Both the position numbers and the translations under genes were made by a program. 64,000 nt of DNA, from contig NZ_CP084951.1 of assembly GCF_022788655.1 (NCBI RefSeq), positions 2,418,001 through 2,482,000 of the forward strand, read 5' to 3'. Positions within the stretch are counted from its first letter, which is position 1; every line of letters starts with the position of its first letter. Origin of the DNA: Sulfitobacter indolifex (GTDB lineage Bacteria; Pseudomonadota; Alphaproteobacteria; Rhodobacterales; Rhodobacteraceae). The notes under the pieces were generated by a model, which saw only the letters and a program-made list of their open reading frames with translations, had not been told where the DNA came from and made no database searches. Positions 3,052 through 21,329 of this stretch are shown here, in pieces.

Positions 3052-3468
3052 ATGTATACCAAAATCATGATCCCAGTTGATCTGCGACATGCTGACCGGT
3101 TGGGGAAGTCCCTTCAGGTGGCAGCTGATATCGCCAAGCTATACAAGGCCGAAACCCATATCGTAGGTGTCGGGCATAGTGTCCCGAACGAAGTCGCGCG
3201 GACCCCCGATGAGTTTGCGCAAAAGCTGACCCGCTTTGCTGCAGAGATGTCCCAGACATACGGGGTGACCTTCGCCCCACACGTCGAAACCAGCCACGAC
3301 CCGGCCGTGGACCTTGACGATGTTTTGAATCGCAGCGCGAGTGGCCTTGGGATCGACCTGATCGTCATGGCAAGCCACATCCCTGGCTTGGCTGAGTATG
3401 TCTTTGCGTCAAATGCTGGATATCTCGCCTCACATTCGGACCTGTCTGTCCTCATTGTGCGGCAATAG
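3052..3468 (+). CDS. Universal stress protein (single domain)
   Basis: 138 residues with one Usp fold. It starts MYTKIMIPVDL and ends SDLSVLIVRQ. The MASHIPGLAEYVFASNAGYLASH segment replaces the standard G-2x-G-9x-G ATP loop only loosely, so nucleotide binding is uncertain. The AAAGGAG ribosome site at 3040-3046 sits at normal distance from the ATG. It follows the tandem usp gene by 100 bases and probably shares its transcript. Small Usp proteins of this kind are typical members of FNR/FixK regulons. Confidence 0.88.
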   Translation: MYTKIMIPVDLRHADRLGKSLQVAADIAKLYKAETHIVGVGHSVPNEVARTPDEFAQKLTRFAAEMSQTYGVTFAPHVETSHDPAVDLDDVLNRSASGLGIDLIVMASHIPGLAEYVFASNAGYLASHSDLSVLIVRQ

Positions 3469-11583: not shown

Positions 11584-11913
11584 TCAACTCTGCCGCAGTG
11601 CGGTATCAATGCGGCGGCGCAAATCTTTGGGCAGGGTCTCGATCACATCGGCCAGCTGGGTCAGATCGCGGCGGGCCTCATGCAATTGATCAATGAGCGA
11701 CAGCACGATGCCAACGGCGATCTCATCTAGGTCAAGATCTTCGGACAGATCGCAAACCAGTTCCAACCGCGCGATATCAACCTTAGAGAAGAATACCCCC
11801 TCTTCTGCCCGCAGCGGCCGCACCAGTTGGGCGTCGATATAGCGGTCAAGCTGGGCTCGGGTCAGCCGCGTGACCGTCATGATGACCTCGTCTTCGGAAT
11901 ACCGGTTGGTCAT
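11584..11913 (-). CDS. cbpM: Chaperone modulator CbpM-like protein
   Basis: 109 residues with the layout of CbpM: a short N-terminal part (SEDEVIMTVTRLTRAQLDRYID), the VRPLRAEEGVFFSKVDIARLELVCDLSEDLDLDEIAV core typical of the MerR-like modulator, and a C-terminal helical pair (LIDQLHEARRDLTQLADVIETLP). CbpM binds the J domain of CbpA and limits its activity. Its start overlaps the cbpA stop by 4 bases (ATGA), which is the expected cbpA-cbpM pairing. An upstream in-frame ATG at 11970 would extend into cbpA and is less likely. Confidence 0.85.
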   Translation of the reverse strand: MTNRYSEDEVIMTVTRLTRAQLDRYIDAQLVRPLRAEEGVFFSKVDIARLELVCDLSEDLDLDEIAVGIVLSLIDQLHEARRDLTQLADVIETLPKDLRRRIDTALRQS

Positions 11914-12857
11914 GCTGCGGTTCCTTTCTGCGCGCTGGAGCGGGCCTCTGCGGCCCGTTTCTCGCGCCATTCGGTCAGAAAGGCGCGCAGGTCCGGGTCC
12001 GGCGCTTTTGGCACTGAGACTTTGATCTCAACCCGCTGATCGCCAGCCGATTGTGACCCTTTGCGCTTCACCCCCCGCCCGCGCAGGCGCAACACCCGAC
12101 CAGAACTCGCCCCTGCCGGGATCGTCATACCGACAGGGCCATGAATGGTCGGCACGGTGACCTTCGCCCCCAAAATCGCGTCTTCAAAGGGCAACGCGAG
12201 CGTCGACAAAATGTCATCGCCCTCGCGGCGGAATTCTGGATGGGCCTGCACCGTCACAGTGATCAGCGCATCGCCCGACGGGCCACCGCCTGCGCCGGGC
12301 GCGCCCTTTCCGCGCAAACGCAGGGTCTGACTATCCTGCGTACCGGGCGGGATCTTGACCGAAAGGCTTGCCCCATCAGCCAAGGTGATGGCAGTTTCGG
12401 AGCCGCGCACCGCATCCAAAAAGGGCACCGTGAGACTGTAGTTGATGTCGGCGCCAGCCATGCTGCGGCCCCTGCTGCCAAAGTCGAAGCCGCCGCCCTC
12501 GGCCGCACGTTTGCGAAGGATATCGGCAAAGATGTCGCTGTAGTCGCTGTTTTGTCCGGCGCCTCGACGCTGCTGGTAGGCATTATCCGGGGCTTGGGCA
12601 TAGTCGCGATAATACTGCCGCGGCGGACGCTCTGCCCCCTGCGCGTCGATTTCACCGGCATTAAAGCGGGCGCGGGTTTCGGGATCCTTCAACAGATCAT
12701 AAGCAGCAGAAGCCGCCTTGAACCGCGCAACCGCTGACTTGTCATCGGGGTGCAGGTCCGGATGGCTGCTGCGGGCCAACTTTCGATAGGCCTTTTTGAT
12801 GTCGGCGGCAGTCGCCGCTTTCGTCAGGCCAAGAACCTTATAGGGGTCAGTGCTCAT
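11910..12857 (-). CDS. cbpA: DnaJ-class co-chaperone / curved DNA-binding protein CbpA-like
   Basis: 315 residues: an N-terminal J domain (about 3-70) with the HPD motif in RSSHPDLHPDD, a G-rich linker, and two C-terminal substrate-binding beta domains (YSLTVPFLDAVRGSE; LPFEDAILGAKVTVPTIHGPV). It lacks the zinc-finger region of DnaJ, which places it with CbpA. It stimulates DnaK and may also bind DNA. An FNR-type box is centred 100 bases upstream (12951-12964), so the operon probably responds to low oxygen. It is the first gene of a seven-gene minus-strand run ending at 5343. Confidence 0.9.
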   Translation of the reverse strand: MSTDPYKVLGLTKAATAADIKKAYRKLARSSHPDLHPDDKSAVARFKAASAAYDLLKDPETRARFNAGEIDAQGAERPPRQYYRDYAQAPDNAYQQRRGAGQNSDYSDIFADILRKRAAEGGGFDFGSRGRSMAGADINYSLTVPFLDAVRGSETAITLADGASLSVKIPPGTQDSQTLRLRGKGAPGAGGGPSGDALITVTVQAHPEFRREGDDILSTLALPFEDAILGAKVTVPTIHGPVGMTIPAGASSGRVLRLRGRGVKRKGSQSAGDQRVEIKVSVPKAPDPDLRAFLTEWREKRAAEARSSAQKGTAA

Positions 12858-12950: not shown

Positions 12951-12964
12951 TTGATTCAGATCAA
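12951..12964. promoter_or_regulatory. FNR/FixK box upstream of cbpA operon
   Basis: TTGAT-TCAG-ATCAA, a perfect match to the half-sites, 94 bases upstream of the cbpA start. It shares a 378-base divergent gap with the site at 13150. Confidence 0.78.
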
Positions 12965-13149: not shown

Positions 13150-13163
13150 TTGATACAGATCAA
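13150..13163. promoter_or_regulatory. FNR/FixK box upstream of the five-heme cytochrome and nqr genes
   Basis: TTGAT-ACAG-ATCAA, perfect half-sites, 73 bases before the cytochrome ATG at 13236. No other site is seen before nqrA, so this box may control the whole cytochrome-nqr run. Confidence 0.78.
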
Positions 13164-13235
13164 TGCGCGATCTGCCCGATCCGTCATTGCTGGAGTGTGA
13201 CTCCGTGATCATGTCCCAGCAAAAGGATCGGCTCG

Positions 13236-14315
13236 ATGAAGGTTGGCACATCCGTATTGGCAATTGGTGTCATGGCCTTGGTCGCCGCACCAGCGATAGC
13301 CCAGACCGTGTCCACTGCCGAAGAAATTCTGCGCGCTTGGCTGACATCCCCGCATGCGAATGCCGAGACCGAGGCCTTCCGACATTGGGATGCGGAGGGC
13401 GAAATTCCCGGAGACTGCGCCGTCTGTCATTCGACGACTGGAGTGATCGATTATCTGGCAAATCCGGGTGACGTTGCAGGGGTGATCGACCGCCCGGTGT
13501 CCACCGGCACGACCGTTGAATGCGCGGCCTGCCATAATCCAGCAGCAGAAGCCCTGCAGGATGTGGTTTTCCCCAGCGGTCAGGTCGTCACAATGACCGG
13601 CGATGCGGCCATTTGCACAGTTTGCCATCAGGGGCGGGCCTATAGCGGCACGGTAGACGCGGCCTTGGATGGCCTTGCCGACGATACCGTTTCCGACAAG
13701 ATCACCTTCATTAACATTCATTACGCGGCTGCCGCTGCAACCCAGCTCGGCAGCGTTGCCCAAGGTGGGTATCAATACCCCGGACAAAGCTACAAGGGCG
13801 TCTTTGAGCATGTTGAAGGGTTCGACACCTGCGTCAATTGTCATGACCCTCATGCCACGAAGGTTGTCTTTGACACCTGCAATACCTGCCATCAGGGGGC
13901 AACGGATTTCCGCGCCATTCGCACCACGCCGATGGACATACTAGGTCGGGGTGACACCACCTCTGGCATCGCGACGGTCATAGACGATCTGCACGGGCGT
14001 CTGAAGGCAGCGCTGATGACATATGCGGCGCAGACCAGCGGCACGGCGATCGTATATTCAGGCACAGCCTATCCGTATTTCTTTAATGATCTCAACGCCA
14101 ACGGAGCCCTTGATGCGGGCGAAGCCATTTATCCGAACCGTTATCAAAGCTGGACACCACGCCTACTCAGAGCGGCCTATAATTACCAGTTTGTCAGCAA
14201 GGATCCCGGCGCTTTTGCGCATAACCCGCATTACTCAATCCAGTTGCTGTTCGACAGCCTGACAGACCTCGGCACGGCCGCCGCCGTGGATTTAACCGGG
14301 TTGGTGCGTCCATAG
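13236..14315 (+). CDS. Five-heme periplasmic cytochrome c
   Basis: 359 residues: a signal peptide (to about 23, cleavage after AIAQ) and five CXXCH haem sites, CAVCH 61-65, CAACH 96-100, CTVCH 127-131, CVNCH 199-203 and CNTCH 215-219. Several extra histidines (H40, H50, H162, H192, H206) could be distal ligands. The C-terminal 130 residues have no haem site; they include PNRYQSW and NPHYSIQLLFDSL, a segment I associate with multihaem membrane-associated cytochromes. It should move electrons in the periplasm. It lies 99 bases before the nqrA start, with no terminator between them, and an FNR box stands upstream. The physiological partner is not known. Confidence 0.87.
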   Translation: MKVGTSVLAIGVMALVAAPAIAQTVSTAEEILRAWLTSPHANAETEAFRHWDAEGEIPGDCAVCHSTTGVIDYLANPGDVAGVIDRPVSTGTTVECAACHNPAAEALQDVVFPSGQVVTMTGDAAICTVCHQGRAYSGTVDAALDGLADDTVSDKITFINIHYAAAAATQLGSVAQGGYQYPGQSYKGVFEHVEGFDTCVNCHDPHATKVVFDTCNTCHQGATDFRAIRTTPMDILGRGDTTSGIATVIDDLHGRLKAALMTYAAQTSGTAIVYSGTAYPYFFNDLNANGALDAGEAIYPNRYQSWTPRLLRAAYNYQFVSKDPGAFAHNPHYSIQLLFDSLTDLGTAAAVDLTGLVRP

Positions 14316-14414
14316 CCGGGCGGGCTGCGAGGGCCGAGCCGTCTTGCATCCCCTACGCGCCGCTTCCGGCCAGAGCTGTCGCCGTTCCGGTGCCGAAAAA
14401 TGGAAAGGACGCTT

Positions 14415-15689
14415 GTGGAGTTCAGGCTACGCAAAGGTAAAACCATAAATCTGGGCCCCTCACCCGGTGATACGCCGGTGATTGCGCGAACCGTGCGCAA
14501 GGTCGGCGTGATGGCGCGGGACTATCCAGGTGTGATTTTTGACCTGCGTGTCCGTGAAGGTGACCGGGTTCGGCGCGGTCAGCTTCTCTGTGTTGATCGT
14601 CACCGGCCGGAGATCGGATTTGTTGCCAGTGTATCTGGACGGGTGCATCAGATACGCCAAGGCGCGCGGCGCCGGATCGAAGCAATTGTGGTAAATGTCG
14701 AGGGTGACGAAGGGCTTCGGTTTGACGTGGGCGCCGCGGCGCAGAACGATGGCGCACTGCGCAATTTGCTTTTGAAGAGCGGCGCTTGGCTGGGCTTTCG
14801 GACCCGTCCTTTTGGCCGCATCCCTGATCCAGCGGATCGCCCTTCCGCAATCTTTATAACCGCGACCGACAGCAATCCGCTCGCGCCGGACCCGACTCAT
14901 GTGCTGAGGCCGCTGTTGGACAGCTTTCGGCGCGGAGCTCAGGCGTTGTCGCGTCTGACCGATGACCCGGTCTTTGTCTGCCAAGCCCCCGGCCCCTCGT
15001 TGATAGATCCGAGCGAAACACTACAAGTCGTACGGTTTTCCGGACCGCATCCTTCCGGGCTGCCGGGCACTCATATTCACCATCTCTGGCCGGTTTCGGA
15101 CCAAAGGTCTGTATGGCAGATCGGTTATCAGGATGTCGCGGCGATCGGCACACTGCTGTCCTCTGGAGAAGCGACCACAACCCGGACCATTTCAGTGGCC
15201 GGACCCGGCGTCGAAAGACCCGCCTTGGTCCGCGCGCCATTGGGGGCGGAGCTGATTGATCTGCTAGGAGAGCCGCGAACCGATGAAACCCTCCGCGTAC
15301 AACGGTTGGTCTCGGGCTTCAGTCTGACTGGCACAGAGGCCCGGTTTCTCAGCCGTCATGATTTGCAGGTGACGGTTTTCGACAGAAACGCCACGCCAAA
15401 GCATACACGCACTGCACTGTGGCGCATGATTGGCAGGCTGCCGCTTGCCGTCCCGGGGGCAACCCAGCCGTCCGAAGCTTTTGAACGACTTTTCCCCTTT
15501 GATCTTTTGCCCGTACCGCTGATGCGGGCGCTTGCGGTGGGCGACATCGAAACGGTGGAGCGTCTGGGAGGCCTCGAACTTCTGGAAGAGGACTTGGCCT
15601 TGCTGACGTGGCGCTGCCCCTCGGGCACCGATTACGGGCAGCTTTTGCGGGGTGTTCTCGACACCCTACACCAAGAGCGCGCCGCATGA
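14415..15689 (+). CDS. nqrA: Na+-NQR subunit A (NqrA)
   Basis: 424 residues. Family marks include RKGKTINL at the N-terminus, PGVIFDLRVREGDRVRRGQLL with a lipoyl-like hammerhead fold, SGPHPSGLPGTHIHHL, GYQDVAAIGTLLSSGE, and the C-terminal EEDLALLTWRCPSGTDYG. NqrA is the peripheral cytoplasmic subunit that docks on NqrB and lies near the quinone site. GTG at 14415 with AAAGGA just before it matches the family start; an ATG at 14400 would add five residues. Its end overlaps nqrB by 4 bases. Sequence similarity to Vibrio NqrA is clearly partial, so this is a divergent clade. Confidence 0.9.
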   Translation: MEFRLRKGKTINLGPSPGDTPVIARTVRKVGVMARDYPGVIFDLRVREGDRVRRGQLLCVDRHRPEIGFVASVSGRVHQIRQGARRRIEAIVVNVEGDEGLRFDVGAAAQNDGALRNLLLKSGAWLGFRTRPFGRIPDPADRPSAIFITATDSNPLAPDPTHVLRPLLDSFRRGAQALSRLTDDPVFVCQAPGPSLIDPSETLQVVRFSGPHPSGLPGTHIHHLWPVSDQRSVWQIGYQDVAAIGTLLSSGEATTTRTISVAGPGVERPALVRAPLGAELIDLLGEPRTDETLRVQRLVSGFSLTGTEARFLSRHDLQVTVFDRNATPKHTRTALWRMIGRLPLAVPGATQPSEAFERLFPFDLLPVPLMRALAVGDIETVERLGGLELLEEDLALLTWRCPSGTDYGQLLRGVLDTLHQERAA

Positions 15690-16492
15690 CCCCGCCGCCG
15701 CCCTTCCTCTCGCGTCCTTGGGATGGAAATCGCCTGACGCTTGTCACCTTGTTGGCGATCCTCGCCCCCCTAACGGCGAGCATCGTGGCCCACGGCTTTG
15801 CCCGGCTGGCGGCTCTGGCCTTGGCGCTGGTTCTGGCGGCTCTGTGGCATCTGGCTTTTGCGAAGCTTCGAAAGCGCCCCCCGGAGTGGGGCGGCATCGT
15901 GACCGCGATGATCTTTGTAACTCTGGTACCCGCCACGGTGCTGCTCTGGCAACAGGGGGTGGCCCTGTCTTTTGGACTGGTCATGGGGGAGCTGATCTTT
16001 GGCGGTCGCGGTCGGGGGTTCCTGAGCCCTGCCGCCGTCAGCTTAGCCTTCCTGCTGTTTTCCTTCCCCGTTGACGCAGCGCAACCCACTGACACGGCGA
16101 GCGCGCTCGCGGCTCTAGCCGGAGGGGTGCTCTTGGTGATTGCAGGAATACTGTCTTGGCGGCTTGTCATCGGGTTTTCCGTGGCGGTGGCCGCCTGTGC
16201 ATCCCAATGGCCAGTGCCGACGATCTGGCCTTCGTGGCCGAGTGCCACCTTGATCCTCGGGCTGGTATTTCTCATCGGTGATCCGGTCGCTGCGGCCTGC
16301 ACCAATGCCGGGCGCTGGCTCTATGGTTTTCTCGCGGGGGGCTTGCTCGTACTGCTGGCGCATGCAGGCGGCGACATCCTGTCGTCCGTGGTCTTTGCGG
16401 CATTGCTCGCGGCCATCTTTGCCCCGCTAATCGATCAGGGCGTGATCTGGGCCAACATCCGGCGACGCGCGCGGCGGTTACGCAATGTCTAA
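15686..16492 (+). CDS. nqrB: Na+-NQR subunit B (NqrB), shortened form
   Basis: 268 residues, versus about 410 in Vibrio NqrB. Residues about 66-143 align by eye with the Vibrio core: GGIVTAMIFVTLVPATVLLWQ, FGGRGRGFLSPAAVSLAFLLFSFP; and later IGDPVAAACTNAGRWLYGFLAG. The N-terminal cytoplasmic part and first helices are missing, as are the loop before the FMN site and the later GNIPGS-like segment. At the covalent FMN position Vibrio has SGATAL; here the aligned residues are DTASAL with S139 in place of threonine. It should still form the membrane core between NqrA and NqrC-F. Overlaps with nqrA and nqrC show coupling. Confidence 0.85.
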   Translation: MTPPPPFLSRPWDGNRLTLVTLLAILAPLTASIVAHGFARLAALALALVLAALWHLAFAKLRKRPPEWGGIVTAMIFVTLVPATVLLWQQGVALSFGLVMGELIFGGRGRGFLSPAAVSLAFLLFSFPVDAAQPTDTASALAALAGGVLLVIAGILSWRLVIGFSVAVAACASQWPVPTIWPSWPSATLILGLVFLIGDPVAAACTNAGRWLYGFLAGGLLVLLAHAGGDILSSVVFAALLAAIFAPLIDQGVIWANIRRRARRLRNV

Positions 16493-17294
16493 CTTATCGC
16501 CAATCGCCCTGTGGGCCCGCTTCCTTGCGCTGCCGAACGACAGCCGAACCAAGACGCTAGGCATCGCATTCCTAGTCGCCCTCGTGTCAGCAACGGCGGT
16601 TTCTGTCACCTCCGTGGCCCTGAAACCGCGACAGGAGGCAAATGTCGCAGCCCTGCGCGAGGCAAAACTGGCGACGATGATCGCGACACTTCCGGGCCTT
16701 GCCAACATCCTGCGCGCCACTGGGGCCGAGACTTTGGAGACTGCCATCGTGGATCTGGCTGAGGGAACAGTCGCCACTGGCATTGATCCGGACCGCTACG
16801 ATTTCCTTGCGGCGCAGACTGACCCCGTCCAAACAGTTGCCCTGACCGCAGAACAGGACATGGCCGGGATTGGCCGCCGCCCGCATTACGCCCCCGTCTT
16901 TGTGTTGCGCGGCGATGAGGGGCTCGCTTTGGTGGTCCTGCCGGTTTACGGAACCGGCTACCAATCGACGATCCGCGCCTATCTGGCCCTTTCCGCCGAT
17001 CTAAACACTATCGCGGGCCTGAGCATCTATGAACAAGGCGAAACGCCGGGTCTGGGGTCGCGGATTACCGATCCGGCATGGCAGGCGCTATGGTCAGATC
17101 GGCAGGCGGTAGACCCCTCTGGGGAAGTCGTGATCACGGTTGTGCGCGGCAAATCCACCGGGCCTGCGGAGGTCGACGGGATTTCCGGGGCCACGCGGTC
17201 CGCCACCGGGGTCGCCCGGCTGGTTCGGTTTTGGCTTGGCCCCGATGGGTTTGGCCCCTTCCTCGCCCGCCTTCGGTCAGGAGAGGGGCTATGA
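16485..17294 (+). CDS. nqrC: Na+-NQR subunit C (NqrC), FMN-binding
   Basis: 269 residues: one N-terminal membrane helix (about 24-45) and a periplasmic FMN-binding domain. The flavinylation motif is SGAT at 234-237 within [13 protein letters not shown], with T237 as the covalent FMN acceptor for Apb[35 protein letters not shown] is the classic NqrC/RnfG core. It takes electrons from the NqrD/E iron-sulphur centre and passes them towards NqrB. It overlaps nqrB by 8 bases and nqrD by 4. In contrast to NqrB, the threonine here is intact. Confidence 0.93.
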
Positions 17295-17953
17295 CCACAA
17301 AAAACCTGCAGCTTCTGACCGCGCCGCTGATCGACAACAATCCGATCACCCTACAGATCTTGGGGATTTGTTCGGCGCTCGCCGTGACCACCTCGATGGC
17401 GACGGCCCTGACCATGAGCCTTGCGCTGACGGCGGTGCTGACCACGGCGAGTGCGGCGATCAGCCTGATCCGCTTTCATCTGCCCGGATCGATCCGCCTT
17501 GTTGTCCAGATCACCATCATCGCCTCCCTCGTGATCATCGCCGATCAGTTCTTGCGCGCCTATGCCTTTGAGATGAGCGAGCGACTGTCGGTCTTTGTCG
17601 GGTTGATCGTGACAAATTGCATCGTCCTTGCCCGGGCCGAGACATTTGCAATGCGCAACCCGGTTTGGCCCAGCATACTGGATGGGGTCGGCAATGGCCT
17701 TGGATACGGCCTTGTGTTGATGATCGTTGCCGCGATCCGCGAAGTATTGGGGGCCGGCACGCTGTTCGGGGCCCAGATCGCGCCGCTGGCCTCGGAGGGG
17801 GGCTGGTTTCAACCGCTCGGCCTGATGCTGCTGGCCCCCAGTGCGTTTTTTATCATCGGGCTTCTGATCTGGGCCATCCGGACTGTCCGCCCGGCGCTGG
17901 TGGAGCCAGACGAGTTTCCCCTCCGCACAGATCCACGCGGGGATCGGTCATGA
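17291..17953 (+). CDS. nqrD: Na+-NQR subunit D (NqrD)
   Basis: 220 residues with six predicted membrane helices. The two half-membrane cysteines that share the 2Fe-2S centre with NqrE are present: C27 in [10 protein letters not shown] and C110 in [12 protein letters not shown]. Other family marks are LIDNNPIT near the start and [28 protein letters not shown]. It starts at an ATGA overlap with nqrC. It lies in the membrane core and relays electrons across the bilayer from NqrF to NqrC. Confidence 0.95.
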
Positions 17954-18552
17954 GTGAGCTGTTCCTGAGATCGGTGTTTCAAGAGAACCTCGCGCTGTCG
18001 TTCTTTCTGGGAATTTGCACCTTTCTCGCGGTGTCCAAACGGATTGACACGGCGCTTGGCCTTGGCCTCGCGATGATCGTGGTTCAGGGGCTTACAGTTC
18101 CGGTCAACCACCTGATCTACAACGGGCTTTTGATTGAGGGCGCTTGGGGCTGGGCTGGTTTGCCGACAGTTGATCTGAGCTATCTAAAGCTGATCTGCTT
18201 CATTGGTGTCATCGCCGCCATTGTCCAAATCCTGGAAATGACCCTAGAGCGTTTCGTGCCGCTTCTGCACCGGAGCCTTGGCATATTTTTACCCCTGATT
18301 ACGGTGAATTGTGCCGTTTTGGGCGGCAGCCTGTTCATGGTGGATCGCCGCTACAGCCTGCCTGAAAGCGTTGTCTATGGCTTGGGCAGTGGTATCGGCT
18401 GGGCACTGGCCATTGTTGGGTTCGCGGCGATCCGGGAAAGGCTGCGCTATGCTGATATCCCAGAGGGGCTGCGCGGTCTCGGTATTTCCTTTATCGTCAC
18501 GGGCCTGATGTCGATGGGGTTCTCGGCCTTTGTCGGGGTGGGTCTGCCATGA
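17950..18552 (+). CDS. nqrE: Na+-NQR subunit E (NqrE)
   Basis: 200 residues, six membrane helices in an inverted arrangement relative to NqrD. The cluster cysteines are C23 in GICTFLAVS and C121 in [11 protein letters not shown]. Conserved [33 protein letters not shown] and [21 protein letters not shown] confirm NqrE rather than RnfA. Coupled by ATGA overlaps to nqrD and nqrF. Confidence 0.95.
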
Positions 18553-19772
18553 GCGAGGTGGTTCTCGGCAGTGTGGTCTTCGTCGTCATCGTATTGGTGC
18601 TGTGCAGCGTCATCCTGCTGGCGCGGTCTGTTCTGCTGCCCACAGGCCCGGTGACCGTGCGGATCAATGAACGGCAGGACATCACAGCGCGGGCCGGAGA
18701 CCGGCTGCTGACAGCCTTGTCAGACAGCGGGATTTCGGTGCCCTCGGCCTGTGGTGGAGCGGGCACCTGCGGGCAGTGCCGGATGGTCATCGGCGAAAAC
18801 CGCAGCCCGGCTCTGCCGACTGAGGCCGCGCTGCTCTCGCGGGTTGAACTTGCCTCCGGGCTGCGCTTGGCTTGCCAGACGACGCTGCGCAGCAACATCA
18901 GCGTGACCCTGCCCGAAAGCTTGCTGACCGCGCAGACGTGGGAATGCACAGTCGTCTCAACCCGCACAATCGCCCCCATCATTCGCGAGATCGTGCTGGC
19001 CCCGTCCAGCGACACGGCGTTCACATTTGAGCCGGGTGCCTTTGTGCAGATCGAGGCACCGACATATGATCTGACTTTTGCGGACTATGACATCGCCCCC
19101 GCGCATCGCAGCGCTTGGGATCAGCAAGGCCTTGATGCACTGCGGGCGCAGTCCAAGAGCAGCGTGTCGCGCGCCTATTCCATTGCGAACAATGCATTGG
19201 CTGATGCGGGGCGGATCGTTCTTTTGGTCCGGCTGGCACTGCCGCCGCCACAGAACCCGGACGCCCCTCCGGGTGTGGTGTCGTCGTGGCTTTTTGGTCT
19301 GCGTAAGGGTGATCCGGTCAGCGTCACCGGCCCCTTCAGCAGCTTTGCGGCGCGGACCACCGAGCGTGAGATGGTCTTTATCGGCGGGGGTGTCGGAATG
19401 GCGCCGTTGCGCGCGATCATCTCGGACCAACTGGAGCGCAGGAACACAGGTCGGAAAATGAGCTATTGGTACGGCGCGCGCAGCCGCGTGGACTTGTTCT
19501 ATGACAAAGAGTTCGAGAGGCTTCAGGCGAAATACCCCAACTTTCGCTGGACCGTCGCCCTTTCCGATCCCGCGCCAGAGGACAACTGGCAAGGCGAAAC
19601 CGGATTTATTCATGAAGTTGCCCTGCGCACAGCGTTGGCGGCCCATCCGGCGCCCCATGACTGCGAGTATTACCTTTGCGGGCCGCCGATGATGATCAAG
19701 GCGGTCCGCGCCATGCTTGATGATTTGGGGGTCGGCCCGGACCATATTTTTAACGATGATTTTGGAGGATAG
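18549..19772 (+). CDS. nqrF: Na+-NQR subunit F (NqrF), NADH dehydrogenase subunit
   Basis: 407 residues: an N-terminal membrane helix (about 5-30), a 2Fe-2S plant-type ferredoxin domain with C68, C74, C77 and C109, then FAD-binding (RAYSIANNA) and NADH-binding ([25 protein letters not shown]) domains, ending in the conserved FNDDFGG. It is the electron input module, oxidising cytoplasmic NADH. Length is normal for NqrF. It overlaps nqrE by 4 bases and is followed directly by apbE. Confidence 0.95.
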
Positions 19773-19775
19773 GTG

Positions 19776-20750
19776 ATGCGGTTCTCTCGACGTGGTTTTC
19801 TGGGGGGCAGCGGCGCCATGCTTGTCGCAACGGCGCTTCCGGCGGCGGGGTCTGACCTGTTGCAGATCGAAGGTCCGGCCTTTGGCGCAGGTTGGCGGGT
19901 GCGGGTGGGAAGCGGAGCCGACGCAGCCGCTGTTGTCCGGGTGATCACTGGCGTCATCGCATCAGTTGACGCGGCGATGTCACCCTTTCGAGCGGGGTCT
20001 GAGATTTCAGTGTTCAACCGTGCAGAGACCTTGGACTGGCAGCCGCTTTCGTTCCAGACCCTCACAACCATCGCCGAGGCACAGCGTATTGCCGACCAAA
20101 CCCAAGGCGCTTTTGATCCGACCCTTGGCGGTCTAGTGGGCCGATATGGTTTCGGCCCGATCACGGCGGGGCCGGAAGGCGCGTTTCGTGACCTCACGGT
20201 GGGGGCCGGTGGCGCGCGAAAGGCCCATCCACGGCAAACGTTAGACCTGTGCGGCATTGCCAAGGGCCACGCGCTCGACCGGTGTGTCGCCGCTTTAGAG
20301 ACACTCGGGCTTCGTAGGTTCTTTCTGGAACTAGGCGGCGAAGTTGCGGCACGCGGGTTGAAGCCTGATGGCACTGTCTGGCGTGCGGCGGTCGAACGCC
20401 CCCTGCCCGGACAGGTGGCACCGCAATGCGTGGTGGGGCTGACAAATGAAGCGCTGGCAACCTCGGGCGATTTGATAAACAGCTACGCCCTCGCCGGGCA
20501 CCGCTATAACCACATCATCAATCCGCAGCTGTTGGCGCCCTCGGACACGGCGCTGGCGTCGGTTTCGGTCTTTGCGGCGCGGGCCATAACGGCGGATGCG
20601 CTGGCCACTGCGCTTTTCGCGATGGGGTCGGAACAGGGACCGGCCTTTGCACAGGCCGCCGGGCTCGATGCCCTGTTCCTGTCGCGCGACGGGCCGCGAC
20701 TGCGTCAAGACATAACAGGCCGGTTCGCGGACTGGATCATCTGGGGGTAA
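19776..20750 (+). CDS. apbE: FAD:protein FMN transferase (ApbE)
   Basis: About 324 residues. The N-terminus has a Tat-type signal, SRRGFLGG, followed by a hydrophobic stretch, so the enzyme is exported folded, as ApbE is. Family marks are DAAMSPFRAGSEIS, FDPTLGGLVGRYGF, LDLCGIAKGHALDR, FFLELGGEVAARG, SGDLINSYALAGHRYNHIINP and ITADALATALFAMG. It attaches FMN to threonine of NqrC, and normally NqrB, using FAD and Mg2+. GGAGG at 19764 suits the ATG at 19776; a GTG three bases earlier is possible. Confidence 0.93.
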   Translation: MRFSRRGFLGGSGAMLVATALPAAGSDLLQIEGPAFGAGWRVRVGSGADAAAVVRVITGVIASVDAAMSPFRAGSEISVFNRAETLDWQPLSFQTLTTIAEAQRIADQTQGAFDPTLGGLVGRYGFGPITAGPEGAFRDLTVGAGGARKAHPRQTLDLCGIAKGHALDRCVAALETLGLRRFFLELGGEVAARGLKPDGTVWRAAVERPLPGQVAPQCVVGLTNEALATSGDLINSYALAGHRYNHIINPQLLAPSDTALASVSVFAARAITADALATALFAMGSEQGPAFAQAAGLDALFLSRDGPRLRQDITGRFADWIIWG

Positions 20751-20757
20751 GACAGCG

Positions 20758-20931
20758 ATGATGGCATTCTTAATCACATTCGGATTGTTCTTATGCGCCT
20801 TTGCCGGGCTTGGGCTCGGAGCCCTCTTCGGCCGTGCGCCGATCAAAGGCTCATGCGGCGGGTTGTCCTGCATTCCGGGCGCAGACTGCGCCGCCTGCCC
20901 CAAACACGGCGCCAAAGGAGATCAGACATGA
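20758..20931 (+). CDS. nqrM: Na+-NQR maturation protein NqrM
   Basis: 57 residues, easily missed because it is short. It has an N-terminal membrane helix (MAFLITFGLFLCAFAGLGLGALFG), then RAPIKGSCGGL and a cysteine-rich tail with four cysteines (CGGLSC, DCAAC). This is the NqrM/DUF539 pattern; NqrM is needed to assemble the iron site between NqrD and NqrE. It starts 7 bases after apbE and its stop overlaps the next start (ATGA), so it is within the nqr operon as in Vibrio. Confidence 0.9.
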   Translation: MMAFLITFGLFLCAFAGLGLGALFGRAPIKGSCGGLSCIPGADCAACPKHGAKGDQT

Positions 20932-21329
20932 CCGAGCGACCTTGTATCGCCGATTACATGGCCGTTGATTTGGTCCTGTTCAGACCGGAATTCGAAATCC
21001 TGCATGCCATGAATGCAATGCTGGAAAAACGACTCTCCGGCGCGCCCGTCGTTGATAACGAAGGTCGGCTCGTCGGGGTGCTGTCAAAAAAGGATTGCCT
21101 GCGCGCCGCGTTGAATGGGGCCTACTATCAAGAATGGGGCGGTCAGGTCGCAGCCTACATGAGCGCACATCCCGAGACTTTGGATGCGGACCTTGATCTC
21201 GTAACCGCTGCCGAGTGGTTCCTGCACAGCGACTATCGCCGGTTTCCTGTGCTTCGTGGTGGTAACCTTGTTGGACAGATCAGCCGTGCTGATATTCTGC
21301 GTGCGTTGCTGGACAACTGGTCCGCCTGA
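20928..21329 (+). CDS. CBS-pair domain protein
   Basis: 133 residues consisting of two CBS motifs and little else: LVLFRPEFEILHAMNAMLEKRLSGAPVVDNEGRLVGVLSKKDC and LDLVTAAEWFLHSDYRRFPVLRGGNLVGQISRADILRAL. CBS pairs bind AMP, ATP or related nucleotides. It is the last gene of the nqr operon, joined to nqrM by an ATGA overlap. An energy-charge sensor acting on the Na+-NQR or a neighbour is a reasonable guess, but no partner can be read from the sequence. Confidence 0.88.
   Translation: MTERPCIADYMAVDLVLFRPEFEILHAMNAMLEKRLSGAPVVDNEGRLVGVLSKKDCLRAALNGAYYQEWGGQVAAYMSAHPETLDADLDLVTAAEWFLHSDYRRFPVLRGGNLVGQISRADILRALLDNWSA

What the first reader, a model, noticed from the sequence alone, without database searches (positions are those of the whole stretch)
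13150..21329. Na+-NQR operon headed by a five-heme cytochrome c under an FNR-type box
A five-CXXCH cytochrome, nqrABCDEF, apbE, nqrM and a CBS-pair protein form one near-continuous run with overlaps, preceded by one FNR-type site. Na+-NQR operons are normally headed by nqrA. The arrangement suggests a low-oxygen ion pump that can exchange electrons with a periplasmic multihaem carrier, with a nucleotide sensor (CBS) at the end. What is seen is the order and the motifs; the electron route is inference.
Basis: partly seen in the sequence, partly recalled or inferred. Interest (0 to 1): 0.75.

Follow-up and report, generated by a model that had tools for sequence, protein, structure and literature searches.

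The report
Rerouted NQR pump with multihaem cytochrome
A bacterial sodium-pump relative appears to have lost the part that feeds electrons to membrane quinones and instead sits beside a periplasmic multihaem cytochrome, so it probably sends electrons from NADH to the outside of the inner membrane when oxygen is scarce.

Summary
In detail: FNR box, 5-CXXCH cytochrome, nqrABCDEF, apbE, nqrM and a CBS-pair protein lie in one run, 13150-21329. This NqrB (268 aa) lacks the periplasmic loop carrying the covalent-FMN threonine, and the N-terminal segment and residues of the ubiquinone site. In one alignment 0 of 80 such NqrBs carry the FMN motif, against 39 of 39 canonical ones; tested cofactor residues of NqrF, NqrD/E and NqrC are kept. 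These complexes form one clade, mostly Alphaproteobacteria. In 248 same-family genomes, 27 of 31 with the short NqrB also carry the cytochrome, 26 within 1.9 kb; canonical NQR shows no such link. Some loci carry 4- or 6-haem cytochromes instead, one lineage has a tetrahaem domain fused to NqrC; 26 of 80 show no multihaem gene. FNR-type boxes recur between cytochrome and nqrA. Best explanation (0.6): an NQR-derived, low-oxygen NADH:cytochrome c oxidoreductase in which electrons leave from NqrC-FMN to the cytochrome instead of NqrB-FMN, riboflavin and quinone. Shown: losses, linkage, fusion. Inferred: route, direction, pumping. Acceptor unknown. My searches found no paper describing it. New variant of a known kind.

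The parts
12951..12964 (+). perfect FNR-type site TTGATTCAGATCAA, between the divergent DnaJ-like gene (11910-12857, -; named by eye from the sequence) and the cytochrome
   Evidence: 5 perfect sites in the window, 0.08 expected
13150..13163 (+). perfect FNR-type site TTGATACAGATCAA, 72 bp before the cytochrome start
   Evidence: sites recur before or between the same genes in relatives
13236..14315 (+). five-CXXCH c-type cytochrome (359 aa; Sec-type signal peptide judged by eye, so periplasmic by inference); all five CXXCH His in 28/28 aligned relatives, plus eight other His (40, 162, 192, 206, 329 in 28/28; 50, 253, 332 in 27/28), enough for bis-His ligation
   Evidence: no PDB homologue at E 0.01
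14400..15689 (+). nqrA (429 aa), below the cut-offs of the NCBIfam nqrA models it matches
15686..16492 (+). short nqrB (268 aa): no counterpart of V. cholerae residues about 221-262 (covalent-FMN loop) nor of most of the N-terminal ubiquinone-site segment
16485..17294 (+). nqrC, periplasmic FMN-binding subunit, flavinylation motif SGAT kept
17291..17953 (+). nqrD, both [2Fe-2S] cysteines kept
17950..18552 (+). nqrE, both [2Fe-2S] cysteines kept
18549..19772 (+). nqrF, NADH/FAD/[2Fe-2S] subunit, all tested residues kept
19773..20750 (+). apbE, FAD:protein FMN transferase
20758..20931 (+). nqrM, NQR maturation factor
   Evidence: 22.8 bits, cut-off 22
20928..21329 (+). CBS-pair protein
   Evidence: CBS homologue in 69 of 80 related loci

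Best explanation
An NQR-derived membrane complex whose electron output has been moved from quinone to the periplasm. NADH reduces FAD and [2Fe-2S] in NqrF; electrons cross the membrane through the [2Fe-2S] of NqrD/E to the FMN on NqrC; since NqrB has no covalent-FMN site and no ubiquinone-site segment, the NqrC FMN hands them to a periplasmic multihaem cytochrome c, which passes them to an unknown periplasmic, outer-membrane or extracellular acceptor. Ion translocation is probably retained through the NqrD/E-NqrC switch. FNR-type regulators turn it on at low oxygen. Shown: the genes, the lost and kept residues, the linkage, the NqrC-haem fusion, the boxes. Inferred: electron route, direction, pumping, regulation by FNR itself, acceptor.
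For: NqrB FMN motif in the relevant stretch 0 of 80 variants against 39 of 39 canonical; stretch length median 31 (range 31-76) against 75 (72-90). Kept: NqrD cysteines 78/78 twice, NqrE 77/77 and 76/77, NqrF FAD/[2Fe-2S]/NAD residues 74 of 75, NqrC acceptor Thr/Ser 77 of 77. The model of the short NqrB is confident (pLDDT 86.3) and keeps the NqrB/RnfD fold. Positions near the quinone that are conserved in 33-38 of 39 canonical NqrBs (140, 141, 156, 157, 159) carry other residues in nearly all variants. Variant NqrB and cytochrome co-occur in 27 of 31 variant genomes of 248, in 26 of the 27 only 1.25-1.83 kb apart; canonical NQR shows no association (p 0.47), and 0 of 39 canonical loci has an ORF with two or more CXXCH. 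Other cytochromes take the place: 4-haem beside nqrA in four loci, 6-haem within about 4 kb in two. NqrC is fused to a tetrahaem domain in L052 and in seven protein clusters, one of them 99% identical to L052. Two genomes hold both NQR kinds. Where the cytochrome occurs without variant NqrB, in 8 of 12 genomes it is divergent to an ORF resembling the NqrF reductase part; two of these were scanned and are ferric-reductase-type NAD(P)H oxidoreductases.
Against: 26 of 80 variant loci show no ORF with three or more CXXCH; some of these contigs are short, but a 12-member clade (Rhizobium, Kaistia, Devosia and others) lacks one throughout. Of 24 genomes searched for the 5-haem family (those of 23 of these 26 loci, and of L068), only L044's has it. 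Part of the NqrB riboflavin site is kept (Gly198 80/80, Asp346 77/80, Phe342 74/80, Ala205 62/80, Thr162 58/80; but Asn200 27/80, Asn203 29/80), so a shortened path through NqrB is not excluded. The cytochrome also occurs without variant NqrB (12 of 39 genomes). No acceptor was found: NosZ not associated (9 of 31, p 0.83), cytochrome c peroxidase not found in the own genome, no recurrent reductase in the flanks. The 80 loci were chosen by short NqrB, so the missing motif is partly by selection (the cytochrome linkage is not).
Confidence: 0.6

Rival explanations
1. Shortened quinone reductase: NqrC-FMN docks directly over the NqrB riboflavin, which reduces quinone at an altered site; the cytochrome is an accessory or branch partner.
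For: Riboflavin-site residues partly kept; NqrC-type FMN sampling a non-covalent flavin site has been proposed for two-subunit Nqr/Rnf-like complexes whose membrane subunit lacks the flavinylation site (PMC11334425 section 9, read in full); 26 of 80 variant loci have no local multihaem gene.
Against: N-terminal segment short (9-29 residues before the column of window residue 17 in the 24 rows of A1) and quinone-side positions changed; Asn200/Asn203 changed in most; does not explain the tight cytochrome linkage or the NqrC-haem fusions.
Confidence: 0.17
2. Reverse operation: periplasmic donors reduce the cytochrome and the ion gradient drives electrons through NqrC, NqrD/E and NqrF to NAD+.
For: The same parts would serve both directions; one of 118 flank ORFs holds a sulfide-dehydrogenase flavocytochrome domain; RNF is known to run both ways (abstract of PMC12174285).
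Against: FNR-type boxes suggest a low-oxygen role, hence NADH disposal (inference); the alternative neighbour of the same cytochrome family is a ferric-reductase-type NAD(P)H oxidoreductase, usually an NAD(P)H-to-outside enzyme (direction recalled).
Confidence: 0.1
3. The complex still works as a quinone reductase through an unrecognised flavin site and the cytochrome is merely a co-regulated neighbour.
For: Shared low-oxygen regulation alone could keep neighbours together.
Against: Fusion of a haem domain to NqrC, other haem proteins at or near the same spot, and absence of such genes from 39 canonical loci.
Confidence: 0.08

Closest known systems
Na+-NQR (NADH:ubiquinone oxidoreductase, Vibrio cholerae type)
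   Same: gene order nqrABCDEF, apbE and nqrM; NqrF, NqrD/E and NqrC cofactor residues; NqrB fold
   Different: NqrB lacks the covalent-FMN loop and the ubiquinone-site segment; linked to a multihaem cytochrome; FNR-type boxes, which canonical nqrA upstream regions lack (3 of 39, 1.5 expected)
MmcA-Rnf of Methanosarcina acetivorans
   Same: a multihaem cytochrome c heads the operon of a related ion pump and is modelled to take electrons from RnfG, the NqrC homologue, on the outer face (PMC11024163, PMC4023990; passages read)
   Different: ferredoxin and RnfB/RnfC instead of NADH and NqrF/NqrA; archaeal; the cytochrome is an OTR-related heptahaem; whether its RnfD lost FMN was not tested here (PMC4023990 names a potential flavin motif SGTF)
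Two-subunit Nqr/Rnf-like complexes (mainly Actinobacteria and CPR; PMC8238504 passages; PMC11334425 section 9)
   Same: NqrB/RnfD-type subunit without the flavinylation site; one-way transfer to extracytosolic acceptors proposed
   Different: there the NqrB-type domain is fused to an NAD-binding domain and only two subunits are apparent; here the six-subunit set is kept
RnfG with multihaem domain (Christensenellales; PMC8238504 passage)
   Same: haem domain on the periplasmic flavin subunit
   Different: RNF, not NQR; multi-flavinylated RnfG

Membership tests
Na+-NQR | nqrA-F in order with apbE and nqrM | tested here: met
Na+-NQR | NqrF FAD, [2Fe-2S] and NAD residues; NqrD/E cysteines | tested here: met
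Na+-NQR | covalent FMN site on NqrC | tested here: met
   (sequence motif only)
Na+-NQR | covalent FMN site on NqrB | tested here: not met
   0 of 80 variants, 39 of 39 canonical
Na+-NQR | riboflavin site in NqrB | tested here: inconclusive
   Gly198, Phe342, Asp346 kept, Ala205 and Thr162 mostly kept; Asn200, Asn203 mostly changed (both changed in the window)
Na+-NQR | ubiquinone site (N-terminal helices and nearby residues of NqrB) | tested here: not met
   (sequence only)
Na+-NQR | Na+-dependent NADH:quinone activity | not testable with these tools
   needs biochemistry
MmcA-Rnf | cytochrome c encoded at the head of the pump operon | tested here: met
   (window); same strand in front of nqrA in 10 of 80 relatives, divergent in 34
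MmcA-Rnf | RnfC/RnfB-type iron-sulfur modules | tested here: not met
   NqrA and NqrF instead
MmcA-Rnf | cytochrome homologous to MmcA/OTR | not tested
   no MmcA sequence was compared
Nqr/Rnf-like two-subunit complex | NqrB/RnfD domain fused to PF00175 | tested here: not met
   this NqrB has PF03116 only

The most novel reading that the evidence does not exclude
A clade-wide, FNR-controlled NQR that pumps ions while oxidising NADH with a periplasmic multihaem cytochrome instead of quinone; the periplasmic output module is interchangeable (5-, 4-, 6-haem) and in one lineage built into NqrC itself.
Probability: 0.5. Interest if true: 0.87.

Novelty: new variant of a known kind. Interest (0 to 1): 0.75.

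Why it matters
How NQR/RNF couple redox steps to ion transport is open: the proposals centre on NqrB with its FMN and riboflavin, or on the NqrD/E switch (PMC12174285 passages). A natural complex that keeps the NqrF-NqrD/E-NqrC leg and lacks the NqrB-FMN/quinone leg separates the two. It would also add a route that carries NADH electrons directly to the periplasm in many Alphaproteobacteria, two of the sampled genomes holding an ordinary NQR as well, and would mean that genes named NADH:ubiquinone oxidoreductase subunit B or RNF subunit D there (names) are misnamed.

Tried and rejected
NosZ as final acceptor: 9 of 31 variant genomes against 67 of 248 overall, no association. Cytochrome c peroxidase: matches in 183 of 248 genomes but not in the own one; association not computed, since the printed list of misses is cut. 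MtrB/PioB porin: 0 of 248, but no control genome rang either, so inconclusive. Recurrent flanking reductase: in 118 flank ORFs (of 193 listed; 19 of the 22 loci listed) the families most often met are CBS (9), ABC transporter (5) and Na+/H+ exchanger (4); no terminal reductase recurs. Structure of the cytochrome: model poor (pLDDT 57.8) and not used. PDB relatives of the cytochrome: none. Sequencing error or lone pseudogene as the cause of the short NqrB: rejected, since it is conserved across one clade. Literature on this variant: searches; the listings, and passages of eight papers (of one of these also a full section), show no description of it; supplements and most subscription journals were not seen.

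Exceptions and overlaps: L070 (Acidobacteria) lacks the NqrB motif in the aligned stretch but groups with canonical NQR. L068 was left out of the NqrB count because NqrA and NqrB are one ORF. The tree uses the 75 variant rows (window included) that had NqrD, E and F to at least 70%, and 25 of the 39 canonical ones. The canonical control is 39 of the 58 distinct nqrA matches above cut-off, picked by me mainly for room on the contig.
Full report
CHECK OF THE OBSERVATION. The cytochrome (13236-14315) has five CXXCH and Pfam Cytochrome_C7; nqrA to nqrF, apbE, nqrM and the CBS-pair gene follow on the same strand, overlapping by 4-8 nt, abutting (nqrF/apbE) or 7 nt apart (apbE/nqrM); 84 bp separate cytochrome and nqrA, and no terminator-like site is listed there. 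There are two perfect FNR-type sites before the cytochrome and five in the window, against 0.08 expected in shuffles.

The NqrB here has 268 residues. Against V. cholerae NqrB the match runs to residue 220 and resumes at 263 (similar with the 24-member profile A1): the periplasmic loop with the covalent-FMN threonine (Thr236, recalled; a T236Y mutant structure is listed) has no counterpart. Only 9-29 residues stand before the column of window residue 17, near the start of the first helix, in the 24 rows of A1, whereas in V. cholerae the N-terminal region that forms the inhibitor and quinone pocket reaches to a bend at Arg43 before TM1 (PMC9325719 passages). In an alignment of 80 variant NqrBs (the window's own copy and 79 of the 80 loci; L068 left out) with 39 canonical ones, an [STA]GA[TS] motif is in that stretch in 0 of 80 and 39 of 39; stretch length 31-76 (median 31) and 72-90 (median 75). 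Near the quinone, Gly140, Gly141, Asn156, Glu157 and Phe159 are conserved in 33-38 of 39 canonical NqrBs and replaced in nearly all variants (contacts 141, 156, 159 from PMC10643135 passages; 157 from PMC9325719 passages; 140 recalled). Riboflavin contacts (PMC10643135) are mixed: Gly198 80/80, Asp346 77/80, Phe342 74/80, Ala205 62/80, Thr162 58/80, but Asn203 29/80 and Asn200 27/80, against 39/39 for the last two in canonical NqrB. The NqrB model is confident (pLDDT 86.3) and matches NqrB and RnfD structures (TM 0.76-0.80 by query length), so the fold is kept and the loop is what is missing.

WHAT IS KEPT. NqrD cysteines 78/78 at both places, NqrE 77/77 and 76/77 (one gap), NqrF ligands and FAD/NAD residues 74/75 (one gap), NqrC flavin acceptor Thr 62 or Ser 15 of 77 (region shown). 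So the path from NADH to NqrC-FMN is complete and the path from there to quinone is not.

LINKAGE. Among the 80 loci, 46 carry a homologue of the 5-haem cytochrome: 34 as divergent neighbour of nqrA, 10 on the same strand in front of it, 2 downstream. Eight more carry another ORF with three or more CXXCH: divergent 4-haem genes beside nqrA (L009, L015, L039, L046), 6-haem genes 1.3 and 3.5 kb upstream (L043, L035), the NqrC fusion (L052) and a 3-haem ORF after apbE (L068). 26 show none. Of these, L011 has a PccH-type monohaem gene directly upstream and L032 a divergent EB_dh-domain protein with one CXXCH; L028, L044 and L045 have at most 593 bp before nqrA. In a genome-wide search of 24 genomes (those of 23 of the 26, and of L068) only L044's has the 5-haem family, on another contig.

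UNSELECTED SAMPLE. In 248 genomes of the same family, profile A1 finds variant NqrB (one continuous match; G889 and G807 partial) in 31 and canonical NqrB (match split by the insertion) in 39, two genomes having both; the cytochrome is in 39. Variant and cytochrome together: 27 (Fisher p about 1e-22); canonical and cytochrome together: 4, two of them the genomes with both NQRs (p 0.47). In 26 of the 27 the two lie on one contig 1.25-1.83 kb apart, 24 divergent and 2 on one strand; in the 27th (G807) they are on different contigs, but nqrA lies beside the cytochrome. The four variant genomes without it: G665 has a 4-haem gene beside nqrA, G757 the EB_dh-type gene, G688 nothing recognised, G889 a contig that ends in nqrB. 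Control: of 39 canonical loci (of 58 matches above cut-off in class and phylum samples), none has an ORF with two or more CXXCH in 11-15.5 kb.

FUSION. In L052 (Bauldia sp. MAG) NqrC runs into a tetrahaem Cytochrom_c3_2 domain. Seven protein clusters have the same FMN_bind plus Cytochrom_c3_2 make-up; one is 99% identical to L052 and probably the same protein, the other six are 64-85% identical (120 best of 963 hits listed). This is the most direct hint that NqrC-FMN and haem exchange electrons.

THE CYTOCHROME ELSEWHERE. Of the 12 genomes with cytochrome but no variant NqrB, 8 have it divergent next to an ORF of 488-579 aa similar to the NqrF reductase part (26-30% identity); Pfam on two of the eight gives Ferric_reduct, FAD_binding_8 and NAD_binding_1. 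The same neighbour stands beside the second copy in G699 (L169). L157 has a 9-CXXCH neighbour; L163, L164 and L166 nothing recognised. Thus the cytochrome sits beside two different NAD(P)H-oxidising membrane enzymes.

REGULATION. A TTGAT-N4-ATCAA site with at most one mismatch is in 31 of 35 loci scored as divergent cytochrome/nqrA pairs (0.92 expected from locus density; L033, one of the four misses, is not such a pair), in 4 of 10 same-strand loci (0.2 expected; L006 has no upstream sequence) and in 10 of 33 loci without the 5-haem gene (1.8 expected; L044 has no upstream sequence). Before canonical nqrA it is in 3 of 39 (1.5 expected).

HISTORY. In a FastTree of NqrD+E+F, 74 of 75 variant rows form one side of a split with support 1.0; L070 falls with the 25 canonical rows. 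The 5-haem gene is found near the base (L033, L036) and on shallow branches, the nine same-strand loci in the tree and the window form one group, and a 12-member clade (rhizobia, Kaistia, Devosia, Pseudogemmobacter and others) has no local multihaem gene; one deep node has support 0.26.

OWN GENOME. One gene with an NqrB/RnfD match and one complex I 49-kDa subunit match, so the operon is probably an addition to complex I. The one genome of the same genus in the samples has no nqrA, variant NqrB or cytochrome match.

LITERATURE. MmcA heads the Rnf operon of Methanosarcina, with RnfG modelled as its donor (PMC11024163, PMC4023990; passages). Two-subunit Nqr/Rnf-like complexes without the NqrB flavinylation site were proposed to work one way (PMC11334425 section 9). 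PMC8238504 (passages) mentions RnfG with a multihaem domain. I saw no description of this NQR in searches.

JUDGEMENT. The losses, the linkage and the fusion are results; the route, direction, pumping and acceptor are inference.

Noticed in passing
window 1935, 3563, 23559: Three further perfect FNR-type sites; with a Crp-family regulator (1187-1870) and two universal stress proteins (2112-2951, 3052-3468) this end of the window looks like a low-oxygen regulon island.
   Followed up: partly
L158, L159, L160, L161, L162, L165, L167, L168, L169: The same 5-haem cytochrome family lies divergent next to an NqrF-like ORF; the two that were scanned (L159, L168) are ferric-reductase-type NAD(P)H oxidoreductases.
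   Followed up: partly
L157:5191-7011 (-): A nine-CXXCH protein with a Cytochrome_cB domain directly beside the 5-haem cytochrome.
   Followed up: no
L052: Split arrangement: nqrABC on one strand, nqrDEF-apbE on the other, about 1.7 kb apart, together with the NqrC-tetrahaem fusion.
   Followed up: partly
L068:8342-10675: NqrA and NqrB appear as one ORF of 778 aa.
   Followed up: no
protein P0360: A 485-aa protein with FMN_bind and Rnf-Nqr domains, apparently an NqrC-NqrD fusion.
   Followed up: no
G666:C1:2677838-2678533: The cytochrome gene is matched in two pieces, one with a stop inside; left as is.
   Followed up: no
L008: nqrA, cytochrome and apbE of Allgaiera indica are each split over two frames, which may be sequencing error or decay.
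   Followed up: no
proteins P0011, P0027, P0066, P0068, P0086, P0104: Longer versions (558-621 aa) of the 5-haem cytochrome with a repeated module; four bear organism names (Anaerolineae twice, KSB3, WOR-3); their gene neighbourhoods were not seen.
   Followed up: no
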